This document shows, in pieces, positions 3,238 through 19,426 of a stretch of DNA of 64,000 nt. Source of the stretch: Prostheceraeus crozeri (taxonomy: Eukaryota; Platyhelminthes; Polycladida; Euryleptidae); NCBI GenBank assembly GCA_907163375.1, contig CAJQUW010014406.1, positions 248,001-312,000 on the forward strand, given 5' to 3'. Position 1 is the first letter of the stretch. Every line of letters begins with the position of its first letter. Under the pieces are notes generated by a model. That model was not told the origin of the DNA and searched no databases. It worked only from the letters and a program-made list of their open reading frames with translations. The position numbers were made by a program, and so were the translations under genes.

Positions 3238-3341
3238 CAAAGTGACATTCAGGTCATTTCATTTAATCTGTGAATCATACAAGTGACGAACGCACGATCT
3301 CTCTCTTTGACTATTATTCTGTCTGATCATATTTCATTAAA

Positions 3342-6300
3342 ATGGTAAGTTAAAGATTTCCTCTCTCATCTCCCTCAAACGTGTGACTAATAGCATCTTC
3401 CTCAATTTCAGGCATCAACTTCATCACCAACGCCCTCTCTTCTCGAGGAAAGTTTAGAGTTATTGAGTCAAGGTAGGTTGTAACACTACACTGAGGCTTG
3501 AACAGAGATGAAAGAATTATTTCTCTTTCAGGTGATGTGAGTTCCAGCTCAGGACTCTCGCGACAAGGCAACGAGTGGGAATGTGCCGACTGCGGACATA
3601 TGTTTACAAGGAAGCACAGTCTCCTTCGACACATCAAACAACGTGTGTGTCAACGCAAAGCGGCGTCAATCTCCGGAGGTGAAGTTGATTCTGACGATGA
3701 CATCTCCTTTCCTTGCGATTTGTGCCCTCTTTCTTTTGATAGTCACTTTCAGCGATCTTCGCACAGACTTCAACACACGCATGCAAATGATCACTACACC
3801 AACGGTACCTCTACCATCTCCCTCATTAATGTTTCACATAATAATTTAGTACGCGACTACTGCATGGAGTCCAATACTCAAATTGTAGATTTTCCTGAGT
3901 GGCTCCTTCAAAATTCTAACATTATCGAAGCGCTCTTCAATAATTTAGACAATTTTAGAATGAAGGCGCTCATCTACCTTAAACTAAAATATATTAAAAT
4001 AGATTTTCAAACGGGTCAAGTGACGGAGAGAATACAGTTTCATGTTCCTTCCTCTTCCGCAACCGAAGTTGTAGACTGCGAGTCTTGGCTAAATTTTCAC
4101 ATTCAATGTTTAAAATCAAATGTAGATAAATTCAATCAACGCGACAGCGCTCTCATTTTTGATGGTGTGGACTCAGCCATATTCAAAATTTCCCTATTAG
4201 AAAGTCATGCAGCTCGAGGCACATTTAAACTACCAAAAACGTTGTATAATAAGAAAGCTGTCATCAATGTTGATTGTAAATCACAGTGTTTCAAATATGC
4301 AGTCCTATCCATCCTTCACTATAATGATATCAACGCGCATCGAGATCGCACCTATAGCTATAGACAGTGGGAGGATGAACTAGACTTTGAAGGTTGTGAT
4401 AGTAACAACATGAAAATCAAAGATGTAGAAACGTTCGAAAAACATAATAAGATTAAAATTGTCGTTCACGTGTGGGAGAAGGGGTTGAAGGGTGCCCGCT
4501 ATAATTCACGTTCAACTTGTTATGAACGTGTAGTCAACCTCTTATTAGTAAAACAAGATGATAGCGAGGAATGGCACTACTGTGGTATTCCCAAAATCTC
4601 TCGCTTGTACACTCACTTGGGGCACTCTAAAAGAGGTGAACATTTTGTATGCGACCGCTGCATCCGCTCCTTTTGGAGTAAAGATAAATTTGAAACTCAC
4701 TATGAATGGTGCAAGCGAGGTAAATTACAAATGGAACGCATGCCCAAAGATAAAATATTTTCACATAGGGATAATGGTGACGAATTAAGTCCCCTGCGTG
4801 TCATTTACGCAGACATAGAATGCTACATTGATAATATCATCCACAAGCCAGCAGCCATATCCTGCTATGAAGTATGGCATGACCACTTTAGGAATAGACA
4901 AAACAAAATGCATACTTGGCAAGGTGAAGATTGCATTTCAAAATTTCTAGAATTTCTCGATAAAGCTGCTAAATTTCAACAATCATATGATTCCCAATTG
5001 CAGCGTAAGTCACTACATATGTCAGATGAAGACAAACAAAAATTTGAAAGTTGCACATCCTGTCCTAAATGTCATAAAACGTTTGATGACGATAAAATTA
5101 AGAAAGTGCGTGATCATGATCACATCACTGGTAAATTTAGAAACGCACTCTGCTCCAAATGTAACTTTTCACTTAGGTTGAGACGTCGTGTACTACCCGT
5201 CATTTTTCATAACTTTAAGGGCTATGACAGTCATATGCTCATAAATGGAGGGTTGAGCCAGATGAAATCGTGGCAGTTTAATGTAATAGCACAAACGAGA
5301 GAAAAATTCATGGCAATGACAGCAAAAGTACCAGTAGATAAAACTAAAGAAAATAAGACAGTCTTCTTCGAAATAAAATTTTTAGATTCATTTCAATTCA
5401 TGTCAGCGTCACTAGCTTCTCTCGTTCGTAATCTCAAGTTTCTTCCCCATAGTCAAACTTTGAAGAAACACTATCCAAACTTAACGGATGAAATAATCAC
5501 TCGCAAAGGAGTCTTTCCTTATGCGTATTTTAGCTCAATGTCTAAACTAAATGAAACAACCCTTCCTTCCATTGACAAATTCAAAAACGATTTGACGGGT
5601 GAAGATTGTCCAGTAGAGGACTATGAACATGCTCAAGAGGCATGGTTAAAATTTGATTGTAAAACGTTTGGCGATTATATGATCGCTTACTTAGAATTAG
5701 ATGTCATTTTGCTGGCTGATGTCTTTCAGGAGTTTCGACGAGTGGCATTAGAAGAAGACAAATTAGATCCTGTCCACTTTGTCAGTCTACCAGCCATGTC
5801 CTTTAAATCAGCCTTTAAAATGACTGGTGAGACCATTCATCTCTTACAAGACCCGGAGATGTATAATATATTTAAGCGCGGAATACGCGGTGGTCTCACA
5901 TTTGTAAATAAACATCATATAAAATCTGAAACAGTAGGTGATGATCATATCCACCTAAAGTACTATGACCAAAATAATTTATATGGCAGTTCACTGTCTA
6001 AACCACTACCTCATTCCGAGTTTAGTTGGTTAAACCAAAATGAGCTTGAGTATTACTCCAACCCTTCAAACATACTGAAGATTCCAGATGAAGGTGATTG
6101 GGGATATTATTTTGAAGTGGATTTGATTTATCCAAATAGTATTAAAAATAAAACTGCTGATTTCCCACTTGCACCTGAATCTGGCGAAGTGACTGAAGAT
6201 ATGTTTTCACCATTCATGTCACAATTTCATAATACCTTAACAGAGTGTGGACAGCCAAGGTACAAACCATGCCGCAAACTTTTACTCACCCAATATGATA

Positions 6301-7271
6301 AGAAAAATTATCTCGTACACTTCTGCATATTAAAATTCTATTTAGAAATGGGCATGCTTCTAAAGTCAGTTCACCGCATTATCAAATTTAGACAGAAAGC
6401 CTTCCTCAAACCCTACATAGATAGTAACAGTCAAAAACGTGCACTCGCCCAAAATAATTTTGAAAAGGATTTTTATAAATATAAGAATAACAGTCTATTC
6501 GGAAAGACCATGGATGATGTTAGAAAACGTATGAATTACAAACTAGTCGTTGATGAACAAAAATATCACAAATTGACCTCATCACCTCTTTTCATTGATA
6601 GAGACATCATCGATGAGGATCTTGTAGGTGTTAAAATGATTAAATCAGAAGTTGAGTTGTGCAAACCCATCTATATTGGGCAAGCCGTTTTAGATTATTC
6701 CAAGCTTGAAATGTATCAACTCTTCTACAAAATATTAAAACCATGCCCTCTCGTAAAAGAGGTTCGCTTGCTGGGTGGTGATACAGATAGTTTCTTTTTA
6801 GGAATTACCACTCAAAAAGATTTAAATTTTAATGAAGTAGGCAAGTCATTAGAAAAATATTTCGACACATCTAACTACAATCCCACTCATCCACTCTATT
6901 CCATACAGAATAAAGCCAAACTTGGTTGTTTTAAGGATGAAACAGCAGGAAAGGAAATTGATGAAATGATTCTCCTCCGTCCTAAAATGTATTCCATGAA
7001 ACTAAAAGAATGTGCAGATAGTATTAAGCGTGCTAAAGGTATATCAAAATCCATTGTTCATAAAATGAAACATCGGTCCTATAAGAAGGCCTATAAAAAT
7101 AAAACTATAACGTTTGTCAATATGACAATCTTAAAATCTCAAGTTCATACTGTGAAAACGTACACATTTAAGAAACGAGCACTTTCAGCATGGGAGGATA
7201 AGAGGTGTTGGATAGGACATAACACATCTCTTCCACATGGACATCCTGACACAAACATACCTCCACCCTAA
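3342..7271 (+). CDS. polB: protein-primed family B DNA polymerase, spliced 5' end
   Basis: Replicative polymerase of the Polinton/Maverick type. Exons are 3,342-3,344 (only ATG), 3,412-3,472 and 3,532-7,271. Both introns have GT-AG ends and the frames join. N-terminal C2H2 fingers (ECADCGHMF, FPCDLCPLSF) are followed by the conserved pre-polymerase region and a further finger (FVCDRCIRSF). Next is a C-rich DHDHITG block like those seen in other Polinton polymerases. Exonuclease motifs are ADIECY (about 4,810), NFKGYDSH and YLELDVILLADVF. Polymerase motifs are DQNNLYG, NSLFGK, GGDTDSFF (about 6,780) and RPKMYSM. All catalytic acidic residues I can check are present, so it looks intact at about 1,267 residues. 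AATAAA follows the stop. It converges with the two large minus-strand genes. Confidence 0.95.
3345..3411 (+). other. polB intron 1, directly after the start codon
   Basis: The donor GTAAGT abuts ATG. GACTAAT is a branch-like site and CTCAATTTCAG the acceptor. The first exon contributes one codon only. Confidence 0.75.
3473..3531 (+). other. polB intron 2
   Basis: Donor GTAGGT after CAAG and acceptor TTCTCTTTCAG. Removal joins codon phase 1 to phase 1 and keeps the polymerase frame. Confidence 0.65.
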
Positions 7272-7466
7272 AGAATAAAACTCACGCTACCACATTCAGG
7301 AGATGTATTGACATAATCAACTTTAACTCAGTATTTTGATGTTGCTTTTTGTAGATATACATGGTTGTTTTATGTATCGCATGAGATCGTTTCTTCCTTG
7401 TGAATATATGCCTACAGTCAGCCCATTCCCCCTATATCTGTGAAAAGACTTTTTCATATACATATT

Positions 7467-7480
7467 TTTATTTCAATAAA
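7467..7480. terminator. paired poly(A) signals between converging genes
   Basis: AATAAA on the plus strand at 7,475 and on the minus strand (TTTATT) around 7,468. The minus-strand signal serves the gene ending at 7,496. A closer plus-strand AATAAA at 7,274 follows the polB stop. Confidence 0.55.
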
Positions 7481-7495
7481 CATATCACAATGACT

Positions 7496-9046
7496 TCACT
7501 TTGTTTTCCGAAACACTAAAGTTACGAGGGATTTAGTATCTTTCACGTGGATGCACTCTTGTAAACCATTGGTAATTTTGATAGCAATAGAGGGTATAGT
7601 TTGTTTGATGACGGGATGATAGAAAATAGATTCAAACATCTTCTCGACTATTCCATATGAAGCGTCTTTATCATGAATGAAATCGCGTAAAATGTATTCT
7701 TTTTTCTCACCAACAGAAATAGGTAGAATCAAATCACTTTGAATGTAAAGGTGCTGTTCATGTTTATCAAGTGTCATTGGTGTTTCTATACCAATCGTAT
7801 GCGCAGCAGCAAACACAGTTTGTAGCATTGAAAAACCAAAGAGTTTTTTCAAATTTTTACTCAATTGACATTGAATGTCATCACCCAGTCTCAGAACAAC
7901 GCGTTGATTTTCAATTGAAAACGAAATGTGGTGTGTCTTTACATCATATTTACTTTTCATCACATGCTTCAACTTCTGTTGTATATAAGGATTTACTACA
8001 TGAATGAAGCTTTCAACTGTATGATATAGACGCGGCATTATATTGATAGCAACTTTAGATTCTTCATAAGACTGGTAAATTTTCTTGATGCGATCACCAT
8101 AGATGTCCACCCACCATTCATCATTAACTGAATCAGCTTTAGTGTGATATTCATGAGAAGCATACACCACACCGCTTCCAATAATAGGTGTATAATGTCT
8201 TACAAAATGACGCGAGGTTGGAGAGAAATAAACTGTAAGTTTGTCATTATATTTCTGAATAACCAACTTATTTTTGTCCGCCATAATTTTTTCTCCATAC
8301 TTCTTACCCACAGTCTCATTCCATCGTTTTACTAACTCAATAAGTGATAAAGGTTGAACACCACGCTTTTTCAAAATGATGCGTTCTTCGCATTCTACAA
8401 CATCTTCATCAAATATTTTAAATCTATAATGAAATTTGTTGATTCGATTTGAATAAACTTTTTTAACATTTGCAGTAGCAATTGACGTTAGATGTAGTCC
8501 ATGACCAAAACCAAGATGTGGATAGAATTCACTATCCAACCTCAGCGTAAGACCTTTAGTAAAAGAATGAAAGCGGAGGAACTGTCTCCCACTCCAACGA
8601 TAGATAGTAAACTCATAAGCTTTCTGATTTTTATTCTTCATGATGGAAGTATTACCACTGTTGAATGCCTTAATAATTTTCTCATTCCCAAATGGTTCAT
8701 AAGAATCTGATTTTATCTGAATCCATTCATAGTTCCACTTTCCATCTGATGTTAAATTGTATGGGAACTGAAATGCATTATTCATCGTTATTCCATCATG
8801 GGTGCGAGGAGTCAATATCATTTCTTCCAAATCATTCACATTCTGAATATTGCTATCATAGCAAATACTAGAAACGCCAACCTCCCATTCACCTTCTAAA
8901 TGCAGTGGCCGATTTAATTCTACTCGATAGTCTGATGGTTTATTTTTGGGAAATTTATTCATAGAAGCATTACTGGGCAAGTAGATTAGAAACGAGTCCT
9001 TATTTTCACTTTCCATATTATTCACATTGGAAAAATATATTAGCAT
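7496..9046 (-). CDS. large Polinton protein, probable virion or minor structural protein, copy A
   Basis: 516 residues; an internal Met at residue 11 is an alternative start. The N-terminus carries a block I recognise from many Polinton-encoded proteins: FLIYLPSNAS, then HLEGEWEVGVSSICY. The rest shows no catalytic motif and repeats beta-strand-like segments. The neighbouring gene at 9,056-10,453 has the same opening block and similar later segments (a LPR-type MPR block and a LGF/ILGF block), so the two are tandem paralogues. They lie between polymerase and capsid genes on the minus strand. Function is not established for this family; a capsid-associated role is inference from context. Confidence 0.7.
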   Translation of the reverse strand: MLIYFSNVNNMESENKDSFLIYLPSNASMNKFPKNKPSDYRVELNRPLHLEGEWEVGVSSICYDSNIQNVNDLEEMILTPRTHDGITMNNAFQFPYNLTSDGKWNYEWIQIKSDSYEPFGNEKIIKAFNSGNTSIMKNKNQKAYEFTIYRWSGRQFLRFHSFTKGLTLRLDSEFYPHLGFGHGLHLTSIATANVKKVYSNRINKFHYRFKIFDEDVVECEERIILKKRGVQPLSLIELVKRWNETVGKKYGEKIMADKNKLVIQKYNDKLTVYFSPTSRHFVRHYTPIIGSGVVYASHEYHTKADSVNDEWWVDIYGDRIKKIYQSYEESKVAINIMPRLYHTVESFIHVVNPYIQQKLKHVMKSKYDVKTHHISFSIENQRVVLRLGDDIQCQLSKNLKKLFGFSMLQTVFAAAHTIGIETPMTLDKHEQHLYIQSDLILPISVGEKKEYILRDFIHDKDASYGIVEKMFESIFYHPVIKQTIPSIAIKITNGLQECIHVKDTKSLVTLVFRKTK

Positions 9047-9055
9047 ACGTTTGCA

Positions 9056-10453
9056 TTAACTCTTCATTCGGAAATGGAGTGTGATACTTGTCACAGCATC
9101 TTTATGAAAAGGGATCAACGCACCAGCATCGTCATAAATGGCAATATCAATTTGTGGGATGTAGTTTGATTTCAGCTTTGTATAATGCACTTTCTTGAAA
9201 GTATGCTCAGATAAAATACTGCAGCTTTTTGGCTGGTATGGTATCATTGCTAGCAATGGAGCTTCAACATCTCCCACACGTACATCTTCACCAATATTGG
9301 AATATATCTGAAAATAGTTAATACGACGCGATAGCGACATGTCTGCGCTAGCTTTGGTTACAGTACCACTTTTAAAGATATTTTGATCAAAACCCAAAAT
9401 GTCCATTAGAGTTTTATCCATAATTAGTTCAATACCTTTTCCACTTATAGTGAGAGACAAAGTACCTTCTTTTTCAGAAAATGAAATATGTTGGTCATTA
9501 ATCACTTCATTTAAATAATCTACAACCAATTTAACCGAAGTAATAATGCGAGGCATCAACACTCTTGTTTCATGTAAGATACCACCTAAAGGCTCTACAC
9601 ACTTTCTGTATAAAGATACGGTCCATTCTGTATCAAATTGATTTGACCTTTCACATGGTAAATGTTGCATATCAGATTTTCCATGAACAGCTGCAGAACG
9701 ATGTCGTAAGAACTGATGAAAATCTTTTGAACAAACTAATACTAGATCATCATCATTTAATTTGCTTATTGCAATATGATTAGATGATTTGATATAAGTC
9801 AATGTTGCCACTTGTTTACCATCAACTCGAAGGAGATAATTAAATTTCTTCAATAATGTTTCAGGAGTCATGTTTGTCTTTCTTGGCTTAATCACAATCT
9901 TCTTCACCAACGTCTTCTCATTTCTTGGAATAAGATCTACATAATAAGCTTCCTCTCGATATATTAACTGTTTATGGCCACTTATGTGGTAATTAACGTT
10001 AAAATTATCATAGCTTGTCAAGGCGCTAGCGAGGTAACCTAAATCATTTCTTAAACTTGGACTTAAACCAACAATCCAATCTTTCTCAACTACATGATGT
10101 ACATAATTATAATCATCATTGTGCGGAGTAAATTGGACAATATGTTTACTCGCTTTATTCAAGAAATCATATATAAACTTTTTACATGATAAGAGATCTT
10201 TCTTTGGCCACTGTGGAATGTATACTCGGCACCCCTTTTCACATTGGTAAGCAGCTGTACGCCTCATATTAATAGTCATCACCTCATGATCAAAAGTATA
10301 GACACAGTTGCTATAAACAAGTTGAGTGACACCCACTTCTCAATTTCCATTTAGCTGTTGTGCATGATCAATGGGAGTAGAAAAGAGTGCAGCTCGATTA
10401 CTAGTAAATCTCTTTGTAGCCGCATTGCTAAGCAAAATATGATAAAACGACAT
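9056..10453 (-). pseudogene. large Polinton protein, copy B, with an in-frame TGA
   Basis: The longest uninterrupted frame covers 10,336-9,056, but the same frame extends upstream to an ATG at 10,453. Thirty-seven sense codons precede a single TGA at 10,342-10,340. The upstream codons give the family's N-terminal segment. The TGA falls in the conserved block just before EVGV, at the position where copy A has Trp. Downstream the protein continues without further breaks to the end. One nonsense change is the simplest reading. A sequencing error or readthrough is possible. It is paralogous to copy A, whose start lies 10 bases after this stop. Confidence 0.65.
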
Positions 10454-10488
10454 TTTTATATTGCTAATCTGCAACTTTGCATAACATC

Positions 10489-10845
10489 ATGAAGACTTGG
10501 ATTTTGGACTCTCTACAATATATCAGAGTTGATCGTGATGGAAACGTACATTTCAAAAATTCTCATGGTCATACATCAAGAGGAATTACATTAACATGGC
10601 GACAATTTGTCAACCTCAATGATATCATGAGGGATTTGGAATATTTTGAAACATTAAGATTCATCTCCTTGGGTGATCAAGTTTGGCTTCAACATTACAG
10701 AAATGAAATTCAAATCTACCATTCTCATTCCGCAAACTGTTTCTCATTTCGCAAATACAATTGGGAGAAGTATAGAAGATATATACATCGCTCCATCATG
10801 ACATTTATTCGTCGTGAGTTCATCGCCCTACTATGCAAATCTTAA
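10489..10845 (+). CDS. PC4/p15-like small protein 1
   Basis: About 118 residues from ATG 10,489; the frame is open slightly upstream but without an ATG. It contains two strand-rich units: DSLQYIRVDRDGNVHF followed by RGITLTWRQFVNLNDIM, then SLGDQVWLQHYRNEIQIY followed by YNWEKYRRYIHRSI. The pattern of beta strands then an LTW.QF..L..I helix recalls the PC4/p15 transcription coactivator single-strand-binding fold. That match is weak and needs a profile search. It is clearly a paralogue of the next gene. The two genes and the TBP-like gene form a plus-strand island inside a minus-strand block, which suggests a transcription or replication module. Confidence 0.6.
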   Translation: MKTWILDSLQYIRVDRDGNVHFKNSHGHTSRGITLTWRQFVNLNDIMRDLEYFETLRFISLGDQVWLQHYRNEIQIYHSHSANCFSFRKYNWEKYRRYIHRSIMTFIRREFIALLCKS

Positions 10846-10867
10846 TCAGACATGACTACTACACATC

Positions 10868-11518
10868 ATGAGTTGGAAATTAGATTCCCTACAACGTATT
10901 GAAACGGATCATGATCGAAACGTCTATTTCAAAGATTCGACTGGAAATGTGAGAAGAGAGTTTGCTTTATCTTATCGTCATTTTCAATCTCTACATCATA
11001 TCATGAAGGACTTGAAATACTTCTATATGAAAAGACATTCACGTATTGGAAATCGCATCTGGCTGCGCGTCAACAATCGGCGAATTCAACTCTATCATTC
11101 CCAACTTCATACTAACTTCACATTTCATCAAGGTAGTTGGGAAAAGTATAAAAGGAAGGTACATCGCTCAATTTACTCATTCTTTCATCATGAAGCGCCA
11201 TCACTACACCATCGTCAACATTCTCCGTCGCTTCAGACTCTACACCAAAATCGATCTCACAACATTACACCAACAGCTTCCAAACAGCAAGTATTACCCG
11301 GGCCGTCCTCAAATGTTAGTGGTGAAGATGAACAATTCACGGAATCTTCAACTCTTCCCAAATGGGACTGTACAGATTCTCGGCGCCCTTTCTCATTCAT
11401 CGGCGCAGTCAATGCGCTTAGAGCTACAAAGACTACTACGTCGGATATGGAAGAGGGAGAGGTGTGTGATGTCGAATCTGACTGTGGACAATATGGTGAT
11501 CTCTACTCAATTGAGTGA
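10868..11518 (+). CDS. PC4/p15-like small protein 2, with a tail overlapping the TBP-like gene
   Basis: 216 residues starting at ATG 10,868, 22 bases after the stop of its paralogue. The first ~105 residues align with protein 1 (WKLDSLQRIETDHDRNVYF, FALSYRHFQSLHHIMKDL, GSWEKYKRKVHRSI). The remaining ~110 residues have no counterpart in the paralogue. They are Ser/Thr/Asp/Glu-rich and look disordered, and they lie over the TBP-like reading frame in a different frame. Either the tail was created by overprinting or the protein is shortened by splicing. DNA binding is inferred only from the weak PC4-like pattern. Confidence 0.6.
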   Translation: MSWKLDSLQRIETDHDRNVYFKDSTGNVRREFALSYRHFQSLHHIMKDLKYFYMKRHSRIGNRIWLRVNNRRIQLYHSQLHTNFTFHQGSWEKYKRKVHRSIYSFFHHEAPSLHHRQHSPSLQTLHQNRSHNITPTASKQQVLPGPSSNVSGEDEQFTESSTLPKWDCTDSRRPFSFIGAVNALRATKTTTSDMEEGEVCDVESDCGQYGDLYSIE

Positions 11519-11735
11519 CAGTCTATCATTTTTGAAGATTCGTACCAGCAGTTACAGTTTGTGTTATGAACCCGAACTTTTTCCTGCAGCTCTCATTAGT
11601 TGTTGGTTACCTGTGCATGTGGCAATCTTTCATAATAGTAAAGTGATCATTACTGGACTAAAATCTCATGTACAAGCAAATATGATCCTAGACTATCTCA
11701 TTGAGTATGTACGTACCCAGCGGATTGTAAAATAA
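11190..11735 (+). CDS. TATA-binding-protein (TBP) homologue
   Basis: From ATG 11,190 the product has 181 residues, the size of the TBP core. Two half-repeats are visible. The first has TIVNILRRFRL, KIDLTTL, YYPGRPQMLVVKM and LFPNGTVQILGA. The second has LTVDNMVIS, then CYEPELFPAALI and AIFHNSKVIITGLKS. TBP proteins carry the same order: an N-I-V strand, KLDL helix start, a Y-P-R strand, F-x-x-G-K-x-x-x-T-G-A strand, and in repeat 2 N-M-V, Y-E-P-E-L-F-P and G-K-V-V-x-T-G-A-K. The phenylalanines that intercalate DNA in TBP cannot all be assigned by eye. The stop codon is inside an AATAAA (11,731-11,736). It lies in the element, not beside host exons, so I read it as element-encoded. Confidence 0.85.
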   Translation: MKRHHYTIVNILRRFRLYTKIDLTTLHQQLPNSKYYPGRPQMLVVKMNNSRNLQLFPNGTVQILGALSHSSAQSMRLELQRLLRRIWKRERCVMSNLTVDNMVISTQLSDSLSFLKIRTSSYSLCYEPELFPAALISCWLPVHVAIFHNSKVIITGLKSHVQANMILDYLIEYVRTQRIVK

Positions 11736-11761
11736 AAAACAATTTTTCCAACATGATGTTT

Positions 11762-12223
11762 TTATTTCAAATCATGATAGAACTTACAAATCATTTTTTC
11801 ATTAGAGGATGGATTACATGAAAAGTTTTGAATAACAGATGCAAATCGAGATACATGTAAACGTCTTAAGATGAAGTACAGTACAAAAGCACCACACGTT
11901 GATGAAAGTGGATGTTGTAGTATGCGTTCATTTCGCTGATATTGACGCGTATGTTTTCTCAACCACTGCTGTGTTGGTATATTTGGAGGTTGAGCAAGAG
12001 AGTCAAATAGTTCACCACGTCGGTCTTCTCCAATAAAGATCGCTTTCCAATGCTCATCGCCTAAATTCTGTGAATGAGTGTGTAGCACAATAAAGATGGG
12101 ATAGTGATTTACTGCAGGTGGTAAGGTATCGAGTGAATAGACATTATCGAAAGCTTTCAACGTCGCTTCGTCTGCATTACGCTGCACTTTAGTCTTAATA
12201 TCGTCAGCAGTCAACCAACTCAT
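11762..12223 (-). CDS. PRO: adenain-like cysteine protease
   Basis: 153 residues, the maturation protease of Polintons and adenovirus-like elements, expected to process capsid or core proteins in the virion. His58-Trp59 in DEHWKAIFI, Asp74 in GELFDSL, and Gln103 with Cys110 in LSSTCGAFVLY give the His-acid-Gln-Cys arrangement of the adenain family. The Gln lies seven residues before the Cys. The start codon shares one base with the capsid gene stop (TAATG). The stop lies inside a minus-strand AATAAA (11,761-11,766). Catalytic residues look complete. Confidence 0.93.
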   Translation of the reverse strand: MSWLTADDIKTKVQRNADEATLKAFDNVYSLDTLPPAVNHYPIFIVLHTHSQNLGDEHWKAIFIGEDRRGELFDSLAQPPNIPTQQWLRKHTRQYQRNERILQHPLSSTCGAFVLYFILRRLHVSRFASVIQNFSCNPSSNEKMICKFYHDLK

Positions 12224-13500
12224 TAACGATTATACTGAAGAATCACGTCACGATACTTTGTAATTTCAATATTTGAATCGAAAACTGCATGAATTAATAC
12301 ATTGATCGTCTCAGCTAGTGTTCTTTTGAACGTCAAATCCAAACGAATATTATGAGGCACGTTCGCTTGACGATAGGGTGCACTAATATCGCTGTCAGCA
12401 GTCAAATCAAATGCATAAATAGTATATCCACTCTTAAACTCTTTCATAGTCAGTCCGTTGGTGTCATCCGTATTGTAAAAGCCAAAGACATCCATAAAAT
12501 CAACATAACTGCGCATAAATTGATCCGAAGCAAAATCTGGTTTGTAGGGCGGACCAGGATGACTCACACCATTTACACGTAAAGCAATTTCACTTAACTG
12601 ATTGTGTTTAAAATTGAAAGGATTCTTCTTTATATTACCATTAAATGCATCATTTTCAACCATTGCCACCATGAGGAGCTTCGGTGCTTCCGATGGAAAG
12701 AGGCCATCTTTCATGAAACTCTTTTGATCTTTCGGAATTGTAAAGGTGAGAAGCTTTGTATGCTGAACGGGGTAAATGGCATTTTGGCGGTTAAGGCCTT
12801 CAGCATGCCCTCTAATGACACTTGGATTCGGTACTACTCGACGAATGTAAAGTGCAATATCTTCCACATGAATTCTAAAATTGTCAACTTTAGCAAATGC
12901 ATTCAGCGCAAATTCAGGCTTATTCAATGTCAGCTTGAGTCGCATGCTGGTATTACAGAGTAAAAACTTTGACTGTCTAAAGAAGTCTAAATTCAGCGGA
13001 CCATATAGCTGACATACTCTACTATCTTTAATCATAGCAGATCGCTTTACAAAGCCACTGTTTGTTTCAACATCAAATTTTCCTGCTTCATCTCTGTACC
13101 ATCCCATGGCTTCCATATGACTTTTTTGTGCTGCTGGATGAAACTGTGATACATGATTGAAATATGATTTATAGGGATAATCGCTTTGACCACCTTCCAC
13201 CTGCTGCTCTCCAATCGTTAGAGAAACATCGCGAAGTAATGTAGTCAATGGTAAATTGTTCAGTCCAACTTTATGTGCATCGTCAATAGCAGTTCCATCT
13301 GCTTGCTGAATTCTAAACCTCAAATCAAGCATCGCATAACTCAAATCTATGTAGTCATCACTACCACCAGGAATAACAAATTCAATGGGGCCAGCATTCT
13401 CAGCTGTTCGAGGATGATAATCTACAATACTTGAACTAAGAATATCTGTCTGTATGGCTTGTTGATCGAACAAACAAAAACCGGAAGTTTTACACTCCAT
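12223..13500 (-). CDS. probable major capsid protein (F54H12.2-like family)
   Basis: 425 residues. The opening SSIVDYHPRTAENAGPIEF followed by IPGGSDDYIDLS is typical of proteins annotated as F54H12.2-like in invertebrate genomes, which come from Polintons. From size, position between the core protein and the protease, and beta-rich sequence without catalytic motifs, I infer a double jelly-roll capsid protein. I cannot confirm the fold by eye. A penton or other structural role is the alternative. The stop overlaps the protease start, and the core-like gene ends 2 bases upstream, so a shared transcript is likely. Confidence 0.75.
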   Translation of the reverse strand: MECKTSGFCLFDQQAIQTDILSSSIVDYHPRTAENAGPIEFVIPGGSDDYIDLSYAMLDLRFRIQQADGTAIDDAHKVGLNNLPLTTLLRDVSLTIGEQQVEGGQSDYPYKSYFNHVSQFHPAAQKSHMEAMGWYRDEAGKFDVETNSGFVKRSAMIKDSRVCQLYGPLNLDFFRQSKFLLCNTSMRLKLTLNKPEFALNAFAKVDNFRIHVEDIALYIRRVVPNPSVIRGHAEGLNRQNAIYPVQHTKLLTFTIPKDQKSFMKDGLFPSEAPKLLMVAMVENDAFNGNIKKNPFNFKHNQLSEIALRVNGVSHPGPPYKPDFASDQFMRSYVDFMDVFGFYNTDDTNGLTMKEFKSGYTIYAFDLTADSDISAPYRQANVPHNIRLDLTFKRTLAETINVLIHAVFDSNIEITKYRDVILQYNR

Positions 13501-13502
13501 GA

Positions 13503-13958
13503 TTAGAAGTTATAGCAGCGTCGTCGTTTAGCGCCTGATGAATGATTAGAGCCTCTACGACGTTTGCGTGAATGCCTTTTGACTGAAGATCGCACCTTAC
13601 CAGCTCCGCGATGTTTCCTCCTTCCTTTTTTCATTCGTTTAGGTGATTTCTTTCCTTGAGTAACACCAGCAATGGTCTGCTTCAATGTTTTTAAACCGCG
13701 TTCCTTCCCACGATTCAACAAACTGCTCTTAAAACTTCTACCTCTGGAAAGATCACTAGCAACATCACCAGCAAAGCCAACGGCATTACTTAAAACATTT
13801 CGTTTTAAAGATCTACCGACATTGGATATGAGAGGTGCTACAACAGATTTCAGTGCACCAAGTATGCTACCTCCACGTTGGCGGCGAGCACCGATGTAAA
13901 TTTGTCCTCCACCACTTACGTAGGAGGGTCGTGAATAAAATGAGGCAGTTGGATTCAT
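13503..13958 (-). CDS. basic glycine-rich core-like protein
   Basis: 151 residues. A short Gly/Tyr-rich N-terminus (SYVSGGGQIYIGARRQ) precedes RGGSILGALKSVVAPLI, an amphipathic segment. Then follows a very Lys/Arg-rich second half (KRMKKGRRKHRG, KRHSRKRRR). The GGS-amphipathic-basic layout resembles adenovirus-type pX/pVI core or membrane-active proteins and small virion proteins of adintoviruses. It probably binds packaged DNA and may be a substrate of the neighbouring protease. It lies directly upstream of the capsid gene. Confidence 0.7.
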   Translation of the reverse strand: MNPTASFYSRPSYVSGGGQIYIGARRQRGGSILGALKSVVAPLISNVGRSLKRNVLSNAVGFAGDVASDLSRGRSFKSSLLNRGKERGLKTLKQTIAGVTQGKKSPKRMKKGRRKHRGAGKVRSSVKRHSRKRRRGSNHSSGAKRRRCYNF

Positions 13959-13999
13959 AGCTCAAACCCTAAACATTGTTAGTTACAACTTTGCATGAA

Positions 14000-15088
14000 T
14001 CACTGTCGATCACTTAGATGAAAGATGTCGGCACGACGCATCCAAGAGTTCATACTTGAAGGATAACCAGTCCATTTAACAAGACACCATTCTTCACCTT
14101 GCCGTTTTTTACATCGAATGATTTTCTCTACCAAATATGTTTCACTTTCAGTGACTACCTCAATCTCATCGCGGTAAAAGCTACCCTCAATTTCTTCATT
14201 ATCGTAATCTTTCAACTTGTAGGTGGTCGGAGAGTCTTTTTGATTAATCCTTGATACTGTAAATACCTCCTCTGTCCAATTCGGGAGGTACCCTTTAGCA
14301 AAAACACTTTTCACTTTTGAGATACGAACTTTATCGCCAATTTTCACATCACTTTTCACATGAGTGCGTTTACGTTGGAATGATTCGCGCACTTTATCTA
14401 CATTGTCAGCATTTACATCTACTGGTCTGAGTCCAATAGAACGATGGATAGAGTGATTGTAGGCATGGAGTGTATCTTGTAGAACCTTTGTCCAATTTTG
14501 TGTCAAGTTGGCAGTAAAATGTCGCCACAAGCGATTTTTTAATGTGCGATTAAAACGTTCAACGAGTGCAGCTTTATAAGCGCTCTTTACACTAAACAAC
14601 TCAATGTCATGCCTCTCAAATAATCTTGTCACATGCTGATTTTCAAACTCTTTTCCTTGATCACTCTGAATTCTTTTTGGAATGCGACCTTCTCGAAAAA
14701 TTGTTTGGAATGCTTTTGCTACTCCTTTCCCTTCTTTAGTTTTTAAAGGTTGAGCCCACGCATAACGCGAGAAAATATCAATGACGGTTAAAATAAAATT
14801 ATTGCCCGAGTTATGTTTTGAAATGGAGGCAACATCACACAAATCTGCTTGCCACTGTTCATCGATGTTATGAACAATATAATGGCGGGTGCGGTACTTC
14901 TTTTTCGCTTGTTTGTGGAGTGTATAGGTAGCCTGACCCTTTAACCATCGTTTCACTTGTGATTGTGGAAGACCACTCGCTTTTGATAATTTCTTGATAG
15001 ATGCAAATCCTGCCGGATGTTTTACATCATAATAGATTGACTTCAAACGTTCAGTCGATGACGGCTGACTCTTTTTCCTCCTTCTCAT
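14000..15088 (-). CDS. INT: retroviral-type integrase with C-terminal chromodomain
   Basis: Catalyses insertion of the element. I choose Met at 15,088 (MRRRKKSQ) as start. The frame is open to 15,220, but those 44 codons look like an out-of-frame reading of a Cys-rich ORF. Domain order: a helix-turn-helix-like segment (KLSKASGLPQSQVKRWL), the RNase H-fold core with acidic residues in QADLCD, IQSDQGKEF and VERFNRTLK, an SH3-like part (KIGDKVRISKV), then a chromodomain (LVEKIIRCKKRQ, WCLVKWTGYPSSMNSW). All three catalytic acidic residues are present. Polinton integrases have the same layout. Confidence 0.93.
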   Translation of the reverse strand: MRRRKKSQPSSTERLKSIYYDVKHPAGFASIKKLSKASGLPQSQVKRWLKGQATYTLHKQAKKKYRTRHYIVHNIDEQWQADLCDVASISKHNSGNNFILTVIDIFSRYAWAQPLKTKEGKGVAKAFQTIFREGRIPKRIQSDQGKEFENQHVTRLFERHDIELFSVKSAYKAALVERFNRTLKNRLWRHFTANLTQNWTKVLQDTLHAYNHSIHRSIGLRPVDVNADNVDKVRESFQRKRTHVKSDVKIGDKVRISKVKSVFAKGYLPNWTEEVFTVSRINQKDSPTTYKLKDYDNEEIEGSFYRDEIEVVTESETYLVEKIIRCKKRQGEEWCLVKWTGYPSSMNSWMRRADIFHLSDRQ

Positions 15089-15266
15089 CTTTTTGTTTTC
15101 TTCCCTTACTACATTTACAACAACTGCAGCATTTAGCTTTAGCGGTTTTGCGATCGTGTTCACATTGCTTAGGGGCTTCATTATGAGAGCTGGCGCAGCA
15201 AGTGCAAGTGACAACGACATTCACCTCTGGCGGCTCATTACATGGCAAGCAACACATCTGCTTCAT
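15051..15266 (-). CDS. small Cys-rich ORF overlapping the integrase start
   Basis: 71 residues with 12 cysteines in clusters: CCLPC, CTCCASSH, CEHD and CCSCCKC, followed by a Lys/Glu tail. It overlaps the integrase start by 38 bases in another frame. The density of Cys pairs is far above chance and suggests a metal-binding peptide. Either it is a separate small protein or it is the N-terminal domain of the integrase joined by frameshift or splicing. It starts just downstream of the gene at 15,268, so they may share a transcript. Confidence 0.5.
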   Translation of the reverse strand: MKQMCCLPCNEPPEVNVVVTCTCCASSHNEAPKQCEHDRKTAKAKCCSCCKCSKGRKQKDEKEEKESAVID

Positions 15267-15267
15267 A

Positions 15268-15960
15268 TTAATAGTCTGAGAACATGTATTTCCTAGGAGG
15301 AGCTGTTTTACGTTTTCCTTTTACCAGTTTTAGTGGCGATGTAGATCTACGTCGAGTTCTTCCTCTTGTTTGCTTAGTGAGTGTGGGAGGGGATGTAGCA
15401 GGTGACGTCTTAAACCAATTTGTTGGCATTTTCATCGCCTGAGGCATTGGAGTAGTAGCCACTGTTGAATCAAGTTCTTTCAATGTCTCATTATTCAATG
15501 CAAATTTTGGCACATTATGCTTTTTCAATAGTTTAAGAAAGTATGACCAACCAGGTGGAACATAGCCCTGACGGCGCTTTCTACGTGTCGCATACTCAAT
15601 CAAGTCTTCATAACGTGAAGCATCAATCACTTTATTTTCATCTGTAATGATTTCTCCTCTATCATTTACATTGAGATGGGGCTCAATACTATTGAAAAGA
15701 GATATGGCATGTGCGCGAGATGCTAAAGATGTAGCAGTCGATACAGAGTCACGCATCTTATTCTTCAAGTTTTTCAATTGCTCAACAGTTTCCGATTGTA
15801 ATAATACAGCACGATGTGGATCTTTGATGCGAACATTTTGCTGATAATCTATTTCTTTCCTATACATTTGATTTGCAAGAGGTTGCTTTACTTGCTGCAT
15901 GGCAGTCAATTGTACATATTCATCCTGAGGAATAACAATCATGCGAGAATAAGAACTCAT
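15268..15960 (-). CDS. conserved Polinton protein of unknown function
   Basis: 230 residues. It opens SRMIVIPQDEYVQLTAMQQ, a pattern (R/K-M-h-h-h-P-x-x-x-Y-x-x-L) I recall from a recurrent Polinton ORF. A coiled-coil-like helical region follows (SETVEQLKNLKNKMR). In the middle is a helical block with YVPPGWSYFLKLLKKHNVP. The C-terminal tail is basic and Ser/Thr-rich (RGRTRRRSTSPLKLVKGKRK). It overlaps the ATPase gene by four bases (ATGA), which implies co-expression with packaging genes. No enzymatic motif is seen. Confidence 0.65.
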   Translation of the reverse strand: MSSYSRMIVIPQDEYVQLTAMQQVKQPLANQMYRKEIDYQQNVRIKDPHRAVLLQSETVEQLKNLKNKMRDSVSTATSLASRAHAISLFNSIEPHLNVNDRGEIITDENKVIDASRYEDLIEYATRRKRRQGYVPPGWSYFLKLLKKHNVPKFALNNETLKELDSTVATTPMPQAMKMPTNWFKTSPATSPPTLTKQTRGRTRRRSTSPLKLVKGKRKTAPPRKYMFSDY

Positions 15961-16622
15961 AGTTTGTAGATAATCATGGGAGTTTTCAAAATATCACTTC
16001 GAAATCTAAATTCTTCCGGACACTCTTGCGTAAAGTCAGTGAATAAGTAACCGTATGGTTTTTCAGTAGCTGCTTGAAAAATTTCAATTAAGGCTTTTGA
16101 TCCTCTGGGTGCAACTTGTCGCGCTAAAATTTCAAATTGACTTTTATCTCGCGGATTCTTGAAAATAGCATAATAGTGTGTATTCAGGTTTCGTGTACGA
16201 GCTTCTTTTCCATCAGGAAACAAATTTTGTGTAATATAGATGATAAAACACCTTTTATGGTGTGCTGCGCGAGTGAACATATCTGTAACATCTTTTGAAT
16301 TCTTACTTTCTTTTAATAAATCATCCAATACAACAACATCATTAGACTGAAGTTTATCCACTGGAATAATTCCTTCATGTCGAATAAAGTTGCGACTTTG
16401 CAATTCCTGAAACAGCGACGGTTGATAAATACCATAACACCAAATCACTCGATTGATAGGTTCCTTAAACAACTCCCTTCTTTTATCCAATAAATTCAGC
16501 GTGAAAACAGTTTTACCTGCATGAGATGGACCTGATACAGTCAGAACTTTATCACATTGAAGTCTGAAATCCATTTTATTACTTTGAGACTCAACATTTG
16601 CATAATTAACGCTTAGAGCCAA
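15957..16622 (-). CDS. ATP: FtsK/HerA A32-type genome-packaging ATPase
   Basis: 221 residues. Walker A is GPSHAGKT at residues 31-38, Walker B is DVVVLDD at about 95-101, and a downstream sensor-like TQN is at 131-133. This layout and length match the A32-like packaging ATPases of Polintons and related viruses, which drive DNA into preformed capsids. Met1 overlaps the upstream basic protein gene by 17 bases. An internal Met at residue 17 would avoid most of this and is an alternative start. The gene looks intact. Confidence 0.93.
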   Translation of the reverse strand: MALSVNYANVESQSNKMDFRLQCDKVLTVSGPSHAGKTVFTLNLLDKRRELFKEPINRVIWCYGIYQPSLFQELQSRNFIRHEGIIPVDKLQSNDVVVLDDLLKESKNSKDVTDMFTRAAHHKRCFIIYITQNLFPDGKEARTRNLNTHYYAIFKNPRDKSQFEILARQVAPRGSKALIEIFQAATEKPYGYLFTDFTQECPEEFRFRSDILKTPMIIYKL

Positions 16623-16962
16623 AGATATTTCCCAATAGGTTGCCCACGGCAGGAGCTATCATTGGAAGTATTGCTGAAAGGAAACCGCCCTTTTGTGTTA
16701 GAGTTTTCCTCTTTCTTTGAAGGGCGACTTTAGGATTGGAGATGAAACGCAATTTCGTAGCATATCGCTTAAGTAACTTTCGTTGTTTTGGCGCTAATTT
16801 CTTCGTCCTCAACTTCCTCACATGAGAAATAATTTCACGAATGAATTTATCGTTAGCATGTCGTATAGCATTGTATCGCTGATTTGCTTTCATTCGTCGG
16901 AGAGCTTGAATGGCTGAAGAAAACTTTTGACTTTTACGTTTCGCCATTTTACGTTTCGCCAT
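16606..16962 (-). CDS. basic protein with C-terminal amphipathic membrane-active-like helix
   Basis: 118 residues. The N-terminus is a duplicated MAKRK. A Lys/Arg-rich helical body follows, and the C-terminus is hydrophobic (GGFLSAILPMIAPAVGNLLG). Basic sequence plus a GG-preceded hydrophobic helix is the inverse layout of the 13,503 core-like gene. It recalls adenovirus pVI/pX-type virion proteins, and the GG could be near a protease site. It overlaps the ATPase start. Confidence 0.65.
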   Translation of the reverse strand: MAKRKMAKRKSQKFSSAIQALRRMKANQRYNAIRHANDKFIREIISHVRKLRTKKLAPKQRKLLKRYATKLRFISNPKVALQRKRKTLTQKGGFLSAILPMIAPAVGNLLGNIFGSKR

Positions 16963-17013
16963 TTTCCGTGTTAGTCTTTGCTAAAACCTATCTTTACCAC
17001 ATTTGCATAGGTA

Positions 17014-17343
17014 CTAACTATTGCGACATAAGTGACACTCGAAATGAGCAATATCACAGTGGTTACATTGGCAAAGTTGAATGCAATTACGTATGAAACA
17101 GCGTTGACAAAAAGCATGCTTACATCTCTTGAAGATGCGCTTTTCATTTCCATCCTTTCGCTTACATACATCGCAACACATAGTTTCACCGTTACTGATG
17201 TCTATAGCAAGTCTTTTTGAAGATATGAATTTGCTAGCCTTTTCTAAATAATAGACGCATGTACAGAAGGAATATACTTCGAGAGTGAGCAGACATAGCT
17301 CGAAAACCAGTTGTGCCACAATCAAGTACCACTGCATTTTCAA
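17014..17343 (-). CDS. membrane-anchored RING-type protein
   Basis: 109 residues. The N-terminal 33 residues form a hydrophobic segment (WYLIVAQLVFELCLL), likely a membrane anchor. The C-terminal half has a RING-like ligand series: CCDVCKRK, FKRCKHAFCQRC, then CQCNHCDIAHFECHLC. RING domains usually recruit E2 enzymes for ubiquitin transfer; that role is inferred only from the Cys/His pattern. The start overlaps the previous gene's stop by four bases, so both are likely translated from one message. Confidence 0.6.
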   Translation of the reverse strand: MKMQWYLIVAQLVFELCLLTLEVYSFCTCVYYLEKASKFISSKRLAIDISNGETMCCDVCKRKDGNEKRIFKRCKHAFCQRCFIRNCIQLCQCNHCDIAHFECHLCRNS

Positions 17344-17750
17344 TTCTTCTTTATGGAAAGTTGAATGTGAATATCTGAAATCGCTTCAATCACTAGACTG
17401 CTACCATGATGGTTAAATGCGTTAAGACGTTCAGCAATTTTTATCATATGCCTTTTAAAAAATTCTTGGGGGTGATCTACCACTTCCATTGAGTAAGAAG
17501 CAAAATGGAAAGATCGACTTTCCACCTCTTGCTTTCCAAAATGACTAAACTTAATTTTCGCAACTAATCGCGCCATGATAATGCTATCAGAGAATGTATT
17601 CATTAATTCTAGAAAAAGAGTGCTAGCATCATCGACCACTGCTTCGATGTCGGTCTCATCTTTATGAAATTTTATCACATAATCTTGAACAGCTCCTTTT
17701 AAACTTTGCCTATGAAAACGTAATGTTCCGCAGTCGTTTGAGAAAGACAT
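17340..17750 (-). CDS. conserved small Polinton protein, unknown function
   Basis: 136 residues. The end has the pattern SRSFHFASYSMEVVDHP, then FFKRHMIKIAERLNAFNHHG and IEAISDIHIQL. This resembles a small domain that I recall next to or fused to the polymerase in other Polintons, but I cannot name it with certainty. It is followed by the RING-type gene with a four-base overlap. No catalytic residues are apparent. Confidence 0.55.
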   Translation of the reverse strand: MSFSNDCGTLRFHRQSLKGAVQDYVIKFHKDETDIEAVVDDASTLFLELMNTFSDSIIMARLVAKIKFSHFGKQEVESRSFHFASYSMEVVDHPQEFFKRHMIKIAERLNAFNHHGSSLVIEAISDIHIQLSIKKN

Positions 17751-17837
17751 GATCGCCCTTTATCTAACCCATCCATTGCATGAAAACAACAACTCTTCTC
17801 ATAGTAACATTTATTGAATAACGGTAACAAGCATGCA

Positions 17838-18386
17838 TTATAAATCAATGGTTTGAAAGAGATAAAATAGATACAGCTGATAACTATCATACAGCGAGCA
17901 ATGATAACCATACAGGACTTTGGCAGTGTTGAGGTAAGGAGGAAAGAAGCATTGGTTATGAACGTAGCTACTACAACGAACAGACAAAATAGGAACACAC
18001 AAATCCTTAAAACGTTTCGTGACTTCATGATAATGTTGATTCACTCTACTATCCCAAGGTGGGAGCAAAATATCATCAATGATTAGATTGGGAAATACTT
18101 TCCTCTCCTTACCAGGATTATTACAAAAGATGCGTATAACATTGAAAGCAGCTAACCATCGTTTAAAGTCAATAAGAAGAGCACTCTCACAAGAAAAGCC
18201 ATAGTCTTGCAAATATTTCAGATTAAGTCCATGAATGTGTTTTCTCGCCCATTGATCAACATTGGGATCGCAGTTGGCATGTTGATGATAGACACTAACA
18301 ATCTGATATGTCCAATTGTTCATAGCAATAGCACTGAGCTCCTGTACAGGTTCACCCTCACAATCCATAAAAATGATGATAGAAGC
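17838..18386 (-). CDS. probable DEDD-type exonuclease or RNase H-fold nuclease, start supplied by splicing
   Basis: The frame opens at 18,386 directly after an acceptor-like TTCCGTTTTAG, with a stop just before. The first codons encode a hydrophobic strand, then MDCEGEPVQELSAI, a D-x-E motif as in DEDD exonucleases. The Met at 18,368 would cut off the strand the fold needs. Conserved-looking parts include HANCDPNVDQWARKHIHGLN and DFKRWLAAFNVI, which resemble nuclease motifs II-III. The spliced start would begin Ala-Ser, as in both ATG-only-exon genes. Assignment is from motif pattern only. Confidence 0.55.
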   Translation of the reverse strand, partial: ASIIIFMDCEGEPVQELSAIAMNNWTYQIVSVYHQHANCDPNVDQWARKHIHGLNLKYLQDYGFSCESALLIDFKRWLAAFNVIRIFCNNPGKERKVFPNLIIDDILLPPWDSRVNQHYHEVTKRFKDLCVPILSVRCSSYVHNQCFFPPYLNTAKVLYGYHCSLYDSYQLYLFYLFQTIDL

Positions 18387-18420
18387 CTAAAACGGAAATT
18401 TACACATCTAAGGAAACGTT

Positions 18421-18621
18421 CTATAACATATTACAAAATGAAGAATTACATCGATGCTTTTCACGACAAAATACACAAATGATATGATGGCAACGAAGAA
18501 GTAAAATGTATCTAATAAGACCACGTCTACGACACTCAAAGCACATAAGCGAATTGTCATAGGGTAGAGTTAGGAAAGGACTAGCAATTCTCCTTCTTTG
18601 ATTTGCGTTTTGATGTAGCAT
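18421..18621 (-). CDS. small RING-type Cys-rich protein
   Basis: From Met at 18,621, about 66 residues. An Arg-rich start (NQRRRIASPF) is followed by a zinc-ligand series CFECRRRG, LRCHHIICVFC and CNSSFC, which fits a small RING or B-box-like fold. It overlaps the end of the split gene by about 40 bases. The frame extends to 18,669, but the upstream part lies in the other coding frame. It is a second, separate RING-type protein in this element. Confidence 0.45.
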   Translation of the reverse strand: MLHQNANQRRRIASPFLTLPYDNSLMCFECRRRGLIRYILLLRCHHIICVFCREKHRCNSSFCNML

Positions 18622-18980: not shown

Positions 18981-19426
18981 ATACATTGTCATCGAGTGTG
19001 GTTTGGTCTGATACCTGTCTCTCGTGAAAATCTATGAAATTTGCCTTTTTTGTGATTCCTACGCGTCGGATTTAGTTGATCTTTACATCATTTTTCTCCT
19101 CGTGTCATCGTGCGTCGAGTGGTTATCCTCGTTTATCCCGTCCTCGCTTCGTTCTCTCATCCGACGGTGCTATCCTGTTTTGTGATCCGAGTCTTGTTCA
19201 CTTGCTGTGTTGCTGCCTGTTTGCGATCACGCGATTTCAAGGTCGTCAAGTGGTCATTCAGGCATATAGGTTGCAATCTTAGCATAGTATTGGCACGGAA
19301 TCTGGCACGTGTTTGGTTGGTGTAACGGTTGAGGGCTGGATTGGCGATATTTTTGTGCATTGGTTCGAATCCCGGTCATTTCAAATTTTGTCTGATCCTT
19401 TTATTATTTTGATAATTCTTCTGATC

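What the first reader, a model, noticed from the sequence alone, without database searches (positions are those of the whole stretch)
11190..11735. Virus-like element encodes a TATA-binding-protein homologue
The 181-residue product has both TBP half-repeats in order. Repeat 2 has CYEPELFPAALI followed by a G/S-K-V-I-I-T-G strand, the most diagnostic TBP block; repeat 1 has KIDLTTL and YYPGRP. It lies between the element's PC4-like genes and its protease, with its stop inside a poly(A) signal as in neighbouring genes. TBP homologues are known in some giant viruses, but I know of none in Polintons or adintoviruses. With PC4-like proteins and element TATA boxes, this could be a self-encoded promoter-recognition module.
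Basis: partly seen in the sequence, partly recalled or inferred. Interest (0 to 1): 0.92.

Follow-up and report, generated by a model that had tools for sequence, protein, structure and literature searches.

The report
Transposon-virus encodes its own TATA-binding protein
A virus-like jumping element, present in at least 150 near-identical copies in a large eukaryotic genome, carries its own remodelled version of the protein that tells cells where genes start, which suggests it may switch on its genes with a private start signal.

Summary
ORF 11190-11735 (+) is a two-repeat TATA-binding protein (Pfam TBP 5.1e-20). It lies inside a full-length Polinton/Maverick with ~1-kb terminal inverted repeats and 6-bp target duplications. 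The genome search scored 150 places, all full length at 99-100% identity without stops. A host retrocopy is very unlikely: 61 homologues (31-79% over the alignment) separate from five other TBPs. In 13 of 14 tested relatives the TBP start overlaps the same upstream gene in the same frame.

Over 62 members, repeat 2 keeps the DNA- and TFIIB-contact residues. Repeat 1 is remodelled; one kinking Phe is Pro in 58 of 59. No TFIIB-like gene was seen in 22 other element ORFs.

Corrections: 'PC4-like' is not supported. TATA boxes are not general: TATAAA precedes 1 of 17 ORFs, TBP itself; ATGCAAA precedes 4-5 of 17.

Best reading: an element-specific TBP that nucleates host TFIIB/Pol II on element promoters. 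The family is shown; the mechanism is inferred. I saw no report of a Polinton TBP in the papers searched.

The parts
11190..11735 (+). TBP homologue, 181 aa (P0001)
11205..11444 (+). TBP repeat 1 (residues 6-85): DNA face remodelled (F99 to P, L114 to Q, T124 to L in yeast numbering)
11478..11714 (+). TBP repeat 2 (residues 97-175): N159, V161, F190, F207, T215 and TFIIB-contact E186/E188/L189 kept
11147..11153 (+). TATAAAA, 43 nt before the TBP ATG; the only TATAAA found 15-60 nt upstream of 17 element ORFs
   Evidence: kept in 10 of 10 copies
11731..11736 (+). AATAAA overlapping the TBP stop codon
   Evidence: its tail beyond 11215 shows pN/pS 1.2 from 10 variants
10489..10845 (+). first tandem paralogue (44% identical to the second)
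11762..12223 (-). cysteine protease, Ulp1/adenain type (Peptidase_C48 8.9e-4, just under the curated cut-off)
12223..13500 (-). putative major capsid protein (assignment recalled, no Pfam match); 255 homologues
13503..13958 (-). basic protein with ATGCAAA upstream
14000..15220 (-). retrovirus-type integrase with chromodomain (rve 1.2e-10; Chromo 6.6e-7)
15957..16622 (-). putative packaging ATPase (Pox_A32, weak, 0.035)
16606..16962 (-). adenovirus pX-like core protein (Adeno_PX 0.0023, under cut-off)
3498..7271 (+). long ORF with Endonuclease VII domain, putative protein-primed DNA polymerase B (polymerase assignment by eye, no Pfam PolB match)
9050..9056 (-). ATGCAAA, 34-40 nt upstream of ORF516 if it starts at 9016 (4-10 nt if at 9046)
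   Evidence: kept in 10 of 10 copies
10833..10839 (+). ATGCAAA upstream of ORF 10868
   Evidence: kept in 10 of 10 copies
13990..13996 (-). ATGCAAA upstream of the basic protein gene
   Evidence: kept in 10 of 10 copies
16597..16603 (-). ATGCAAA upstream of the putative ATPase gene, if it starts at its first ATG, 16574
   Evidence: no copy covered it
17002..17008 (-). ATGCAAA upstream of the pX-like gene
   Evidence: kept in 6 of 6 copies
1..25051 (.). part of the full-length Polinton that lies in the window (its left end is 2,969 bases to the left of the window, contig position 245,032)
24040..25051 (.). right terminal inverted repeat, followed by the target duplication AATGCA

Best explanation
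A Polinton lineage carries its own TBP. SHOWN: two-repeat TBP homology; a set of 62 related proteins that stands apart from the five other TBPs compared; location inside a full-length, recently multiplied Polinton; overlap with the same upstream gene in most relatives that could be tested; retention of the repeat-2 DNA and TFIIB-contact residues; systematic change of the repeat-1 DNA face. INFERRED: the protein binds and bends element promoter DNA mainly through repeat 2, offers its C-terminal stirrup to host TFIIB, and so recruits host RNA polymerase II to element genes. Its changed repeat 1 would alter 3'-half promoter recognition and lower binding of host regulators that sit on the N-terminal lobe (TFIIA, Mot1/BTAF1, TAF1). 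INFERRED, weaker: the DNA signal is the ATGCAAA motif that lies at TATA-like distance before 4-5 of 17 ORFs, while the TBP gene has a normal TATA box and could be switched on first by host TBP.
For: TBP homology. Family: 61 homologues; 62 rows split from 5 other TBPs at 100/100 (three cellular, two from IMG/VR contigs). Element: TIRs; 6-bp duplications in 5 of 5 copies examined; 150 of 150 scored genome matches full length without stops; 10 of 10 fetched 9.9-kb stretches keep the gene order across window 7.5-15.6 kb at about 99%. Conserved overlap: 13 of 14 tested relatives. Residues over 62 rows: N69 50 of 50 with a letter, N159 62/62, F116 62/62, F190 61/62, F207 62/62, V161 62/62, T215 61/62; E186 61/62, E188 62/62, L189 55/62; F99 to P 58 of 59, L114 to Q 58/62, T124 to L 56/62, K138 to E/D 48/62. 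TBPs of large viruses by contrast keep the first TFIIB-contact Glu in only about 40%, mostly come with their own TFIIB (not in poxviruses), and lack the host-regulator signature of the N-terminal lobe (PMC7221094, passages seen). No TFIIB match among 22 other element ORFs scanned with Pfam. Motif.
Against: No structure prediction (tool off), no expression or binding data. Within-genome selection signal is modest: TBP pN/pS 0.45 from 23 variants, and these copies were picked by their TBP match. TATA-contact residues of repeat 1 are changed and L205 of repeat 2 varies (Leu in 24 of 62), so binding to TATA cannot be assumed. ATGCAAA is absent before 12-13 of 17 ORFs, including TBP, capsid and integrase, and it is also the classical octamer core of host POU factors (recalled). 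With first-ATG starts it is 4 of 17 in the -50 to -20 window (7 of 1000 control sets as high for any 7-mer). Over the 80 nt before the ORFs 22-35 of 1000 control sets do as well for 7-mers and 164-170 for 6-mers. The relatives' DNA could not be fetched, so motif conservation outside this genome is untested.
Confidence: 0.6

Rival explanations
1. Host TBP (or TRF) retrocopy captured by one element copy, without function.
For: TBP is a universal host protein; capture is the likely ultimate origin. The host's own TBP was not obtained (genome search did not complete), so it was not compared directly.
Against: 61 homologues, separated from five other TBPs at 100/100; 24% identical to a eukaryotic TBP (E. 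cuniculi) but up to 79-82% to relatives; same overlap with the upstream gene in 13 of 14 relatives tested.
Confidence: 0.02
2. A decoy: the protein keeps the TFIIB-binding stirrup and binds DNA poorly, and so titrates host TFIIB and dampens host transcription or defence instead of starting element genes.
For: The TFIIB-contact Glu pair is among the best kept positions (E188 62/62, E186 61/62); the repeat-1 DNA face is changed.
Against: DNA-contact Asn and three of four kinking Phe are kept in nearly all rows, which a pure decoy would not need.
Confidence: 0.15
3. The TBP fold works in replication or packaging (DNA bending near the terminal repeats) and not in transcription.
For: Single TBP-like lobes exist in non-transcription proteins such as RNase HIII (PMC7221094 passages).
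Against: Retention of the TFIIB-contact Glu pair has no obvious reason in that case.
Confidence: 0.08
4. TBP acts as a plain extra copy of host TBP on ordinary TATA promoters, and ATGCAAA is a site for a host POU factor.
For: The TBP gene has a canonical TATAAAA at -43 kept in 10 of 10 copies; ATGCAAAT is the octamer motif (recalled).
Against: Only 1 of 17 ORFs has TATAAA upstream; the repeat-1 residues differ from yeast TBP in nearly all rows.
Confidence: 0.15

Closest known systems
Cellular TBP (archaea, eukaryotes)
   Same: Two tandem repeats, minor-groove Asn pair, three of four kinking Phe, TFIIB-contact stirrup
   Different: 24% identity to E. cuniculi TBP; F99 is Pro, L114 Gln, T124 Leu; the lysine at 138 mostly acidic
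TBPs of large DNA viruses (phycodnaviruses, mimiviruses, poxviruses, asfarvirus)
   Same: Virus-type element with a two-lobe TBP; N-terminal lobe signature lost (PMC7221094 passages; megavirus TBP PMC11464507 passage; further families PMC11410667 passages)
   Different: Those viruses mostly carry their own TFIIB and vary at the TFIIB-contact Glu (about 40% kept at C.L3.2); here 61-62 of 62 keep each Glu and no TFIIB was seen
Mirusvirus and nimavirus TBPs (wsv303)
   Same: TBP as a gene of DNA viruses of plankton and crustaceans (PMC10132985; PMC10871703; passages seen)
   Different: Large viruses of other groups; no sequence comparison was made here because none was fetched
Beta/gamma-herpesvirus TBP mimics (KSHV ORF24)
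   Same: Virus protein that redirects host Pol II to late viral promoters (search listing only; the variant TATA signal is recalled)
   Different: One of six viral proteins needed; described as a TBP mimic (listing), not with the clear TBP homology seen here
Polintons/Mavericks and adintoviruses
   Same: Terminal inverted repeats, 6-bp duplications, rve integrase with chromodomain, C48 protease, weak pX match
   Different: No TBP seen in listings or opened passages; the founding adintovirus paper was not held

Membership tests
TBP (PF00352) | Profile match above the curated cut-off, two tandem repeats | tested here: met
   71.6 bits against 22.9, two stretches; 62 of 62 rows match at E 0.001
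TBP (PF00352) | Minor-groove Asn pair and four kinking Phe | tested here: inconclusive
   Asn pair kept; three of four Phe kept, F99 is Pro in 58 of 59
TBP (PF00352) | TFIIB-contact residues of the C-terminal stirrup | tested here: met
   E186 61/62, E188 62/62, L189 55/62; that these are the contacts is from PMC7221094 (C.L3.2, C.L3.4) plus recalled yeast numbering
TBP (PF00352) | Saddle-shaped structure | not testable with these tools
   structure prediction switched off
TBP (PF00352) | Sequence-specific binding to TATA DNA | not testable with these tools
   needs protein
Polinton/Maverick | Terminal inverted repeats and 6-bp target duplication | tested here: met
   about 1.0-1.4 kb repeats; perfect 6-bp duplications in 5 of 5 copies examined
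Polinton/Maverick | Retrovirus-type integrase | tested here: met
   rve 1.2e-10 plus chromodomain
Polinton/Maverick | Protein-primed DNA polymerase B | tested here: inconclusive
   1257-aa ORF passes the Pfam cut-off for Endonuclease VII only; polymerase motifs seen by eye
Polinton/Maverick | Protease, packaging ATPase, double-jelly-roll capsid | tested here: inconclusive
   C48 8.9e-4, Pox_A32 0.035; capsid protein has 255 homologues but no Pfam match, assigned from recall
PC4 (genes 10489-10845 and 10868-11518) | Sequence match to PC4 | tested here: not met
   no PC4 hit in Pfam or PDB up to E 10; pairwise z 1.7 and 0.5
Orthogonal viral TBP-TFIIB pair | Own TFIIB-like gene | tested here: not met
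   none among 22 other element ORFs scanned with Pfam; a very divergent TFIIB, or an ORF not scanned, could be missed

The most novel reading that the evidence does not exclude
A transposon-virus runs a private core-promoter code: its remodelled TBP reads ATGCAAA instead of TATA at element promoters, hands the DNA to host TFIIB and Pol II, and escapes host regulators of the N-terminal TBP lobe, while its own gene is first switched on by host TBP through a normal TATA box.
Probability: 0.2. Interest if true: 0.92.

Novelty: new variant of a known kind. Interest (0 to 1): 0.76.

Why it matters
Polintons are thought to lie near the root of many eukaryotic DNA viruses (recalled), and how they turn on their genes is little known. 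A dedicated TBP that keeps the TFIIB face but has a changed DNA face, with no partner TFIIB seen, would be a different solution from that of the large viruses, which mostly replace both. It makes a clear test possible: does a small element redirect host Pol II with one protein and one promoter word? It also gives a natural set of 62 TBP variants for asking how TBP reads DNA, and it would widen the known distribution of virus-encoded TBP to a transposon-virus class.

Tried and rejected
Host retrocopy: rejected, though the host's own TBP was not obtained. Context of relatives: IMG/VR scans with P0001, the TBP alignment and the capsid alignment gave nothing; species-genome scans gave nothing; phage records gave nothing. 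The scans work through a few short patterns, so they can miss relatives. A shared contig length (7106) between one TBP hit and one capsid hit was dropped as evidence, since by my own rough estimate nearly one such coincidence is expected by chance. PC4 identity: not supported. General TATA boxes: not supported. An ATGCAAAT near the polymerase ORF has no counterpart in the left arms of two diverged copies and is not counted. The long tail of ORF 10868-11518 inside the TBP gene looks unselected (8 nonsynonymous, 2 synonymous variants, pN/pS 1.2, against 0.45 for the TBP frame; small numbers). Rfam and tRNA searches of the window: none. Tree: long branches separate the family from the other TBPs, so its origin within TBP is not resolved.

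Not obtained: the host's own TBP and other TBP lineages in the same genome (genome search did not complete), a structure model, DNA of the relatives.

Full report
OBSERVATION. The ORF at 11190-11735 (+) gives a 181-residue protein. Pfam TBP matches at 5.1e-20 (71.6 bits, cut-off 22.9), with two stretches. It matches 35 distinct PDB TBP sequences at E 2.4e-7 or better and ten NCBIfam TBP models, the latter all below their own cut-offs. The stop lies in an AATAAA, and the convergent protease gene ends the same way 26 bases on.

SETTING. The window lies in a 2.05-Gb genome of 14,165 contigs. The element is a full-length Polinton. Comparison of copies places its right end at window 25051 and its left end 2,969 bases left of the window. 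The terminal inverted repeats are about 1.0-1.4 kb (98% between arms over a 1,024-column alignment in this copy) and begin AGTAGTAAG. The flanking 6-bp duplications are perfect in 5 of 5 copies examined, AATGCA for this copy. It is 28.0 kb, of which about 4.3 kb is a LINE present in this copy and absent from the six other copies compared at that place. Genes include an rve integrase with chromodomain, a C48 protease (just under cut-off) and a weak adenovirus pX match. The capsid, ATPase and polymerase names rest on recall, weak matches or motifs seen by eye.

COPIES. A search of the genome with the protein scored 150 places (of 11,886 first-look candidates). All 150, this copy included, match over residues 1-181 at 99-100% identity with no stop; 150 is a lower bound and favours intact copies. 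Ten further copies, fetched as 9.9-kb stretches, keep the gene order across window 7.5-15.6 kb at about 99%. In 3 of 10 the polymerase end (before window 7431) is only about 86% identical, so element lineages probably recombine; two of these, extended leftwards, are about 80% identical there. In the rows compared for TBP (36 plus the window; one place counted twice, one locus dropped because its alignment did not span the gene) there are no indels and no stops; variants give pN/pS 0.45 (14 nonsynonymous, 9 synonymous). The overlapping tail of the upstream ORF gives 1.2 (8 and 2). The copies were chosen by TBP similarity, so this is not an unbiased test.

FAMILY. A search of 5.8 billion proteins found 61 homologues. 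With P0001 they make 62 rows, all matching Pfam TBP on their own, at 31-79% identity to P0001 over the alignment. In a tree with five other TBPs (yeast, E. cuniculi, M. jannaschii, and two, L056 and L057, from IMG/VR contigs of unstated nature) the 62 rows stand on one side of a fully supported but long branch. A recent capture of host TBP is therefore unlikely; where the family branches among TBPs is open, and the host's own TBP was not in the tree.

CONSERVED NEIGHBOUR. Some relatives have residues upstream of the start Met. Read back in the other frame, these allow the C-terminal sequence of the window's upstream gene. In 13 of 14 relatives tested the fit exceeds shuffles (12 at P 0.0055 or less, P0029 at 0.014); P0018, one residue shorter, does not. 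I picked the 14 rows by eye and left out eight other rows with longer N-termini, and codons were treated as independent. This indicates that these relatives too sit behind the same gene. That gene is duplicated in tandem (44% identity, E 5e-32). It shows no PC4 match in Pfam or PDB and only a chance-level alignment to recalled PC4. A protein search with it found 2 homologues.

RESIDUES (yeast numbering; the recalled yeast sequence was checked; counts). Kept: Asn69 (50 of 50 rows with a letter), Asn159 (62/62), Phe116 (62/62), Phe190 (61/62), Phe207 (62/62), Val161 (62/62), Thr215 (61/62). Also kept are Glu186 (61/62), Glu188 (62/62) and Leu189 (55/62), the surface that meets TFIIB. Changed: Phe99 to Pro (58 of 59), Leu114 to Gln (58/62), Thr124 to Leu (56/62), Val71 kept in 1 row, Lys138 to Glu/Asp (48/62). 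Leu205 of repeat 2 varies (Leu in 24). So the half of the saddle formed by repeat 2 is largely conserved and the half formed by repeat 1 is remodelled. The roles of the single residues in DNA and TFIIA contact are recalled. That TFIIA, Mot1, Brf1 and TAF1 share an N-terminal-lobe face, that viral TBPs lose it, that they keep the first TFIIB-contact Glu in about 40%, and that almost all of these viruses except poxviruses have a TFIIB-like protein, is from passages of PMC7221094. This family differs on the last two counts: no TFIIB match was seen in 22 other element ORFs.

PROMOTERS. TATAAA occurs 15-60 nt upstream of 1 of 17 element ORFs, the TBP gene (TATAAAA at -43); random ATG sets average 0.3. 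ATGCAAA lies 20-50 nt upstream of 5 of 17 (control mean 0.13; 0 of 1000 control sets reach 5 for any 7-mer). This used the second in-frame ATG for ORF516 and for the polymerase ORF. With first ATGs throughout it is 4 of 17, reached by 7 of 1000 control sets. The distance window was chosen after seeing the sites; over 0-80 nt, 22-35 of 1000 control sets do as well for 7-mers and 164-170 for 6-mers. It is a lead, not a result. The sites at ORF516, ORF 10868 and the basic gene are kept in 10 of 10 near-identical copies, and the pX-like site in 6 of 6; the ATPase site had no copy to compare.

MECHANISM. The most economical reading is a TBP that serves element promoters through host TFIIB and Pol II. 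I put 0.6 on this. The private ATGCAAA code is a bolder version at 0.2. Rivals are a TFIIB decoy, a non-transcription role, and a plain extra TBP on TATA promoters.

NOVELTY. Virus-encoded TBPs are known in several groups of large DNA viruses (passages). Searches for Polinton, Maverick or adintovirus with TBP, TATA or transcription-factor terms showed no report of one in a Polinton. Of the papers listed there I opened passages of PMC10132985, PMC10675990, PMC11464507 and PMC12220804, and also of PMC11071296 and PMC11071308 (no TATA or TBP in either); the rest I saw as listings. The library holds open-licence papers only, and the founding adintovirus paper was not held. I call it a new variant of a known kind.

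Noticed in passing
18977-23310: LINE (endonuclease and reverse transcriptase ORF 20201-23185) inserted at the 5' end of ORF 18581-18982 in this copy; six other copies compared lack it.
   Followed up: partly
window before 7431; L010, L017, L018, L058, L059: Copies share about 99% identity in the capsid/TBP half but 79-86% in the polymerase half in 3 of 10, so element lineages seem to exchange arms.
   Followed up: partly
9050, 10833, 13990, 16597, 17002: ATGCAAA (octamer-like) at TATA-like distance before several element genes.
   Followed up: yes
733-2629: Direct repeats of about 140 and 204 bases in the left arm of the element.
   Followed up: no
12223-13500: A protein listed at 100% identity to the putative capsid protein (two residues differ by eye) occurs in contigs from jgi, lgn and ena sources, and one 86% relative is filed under a Pseudomonadota MAG, perhaps contamination.
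   Followed up: no
54957-55739 and 61696-62193: ORFs that look by eye like Tc1/mariner transposase remains; not tested.
   Followed up: no
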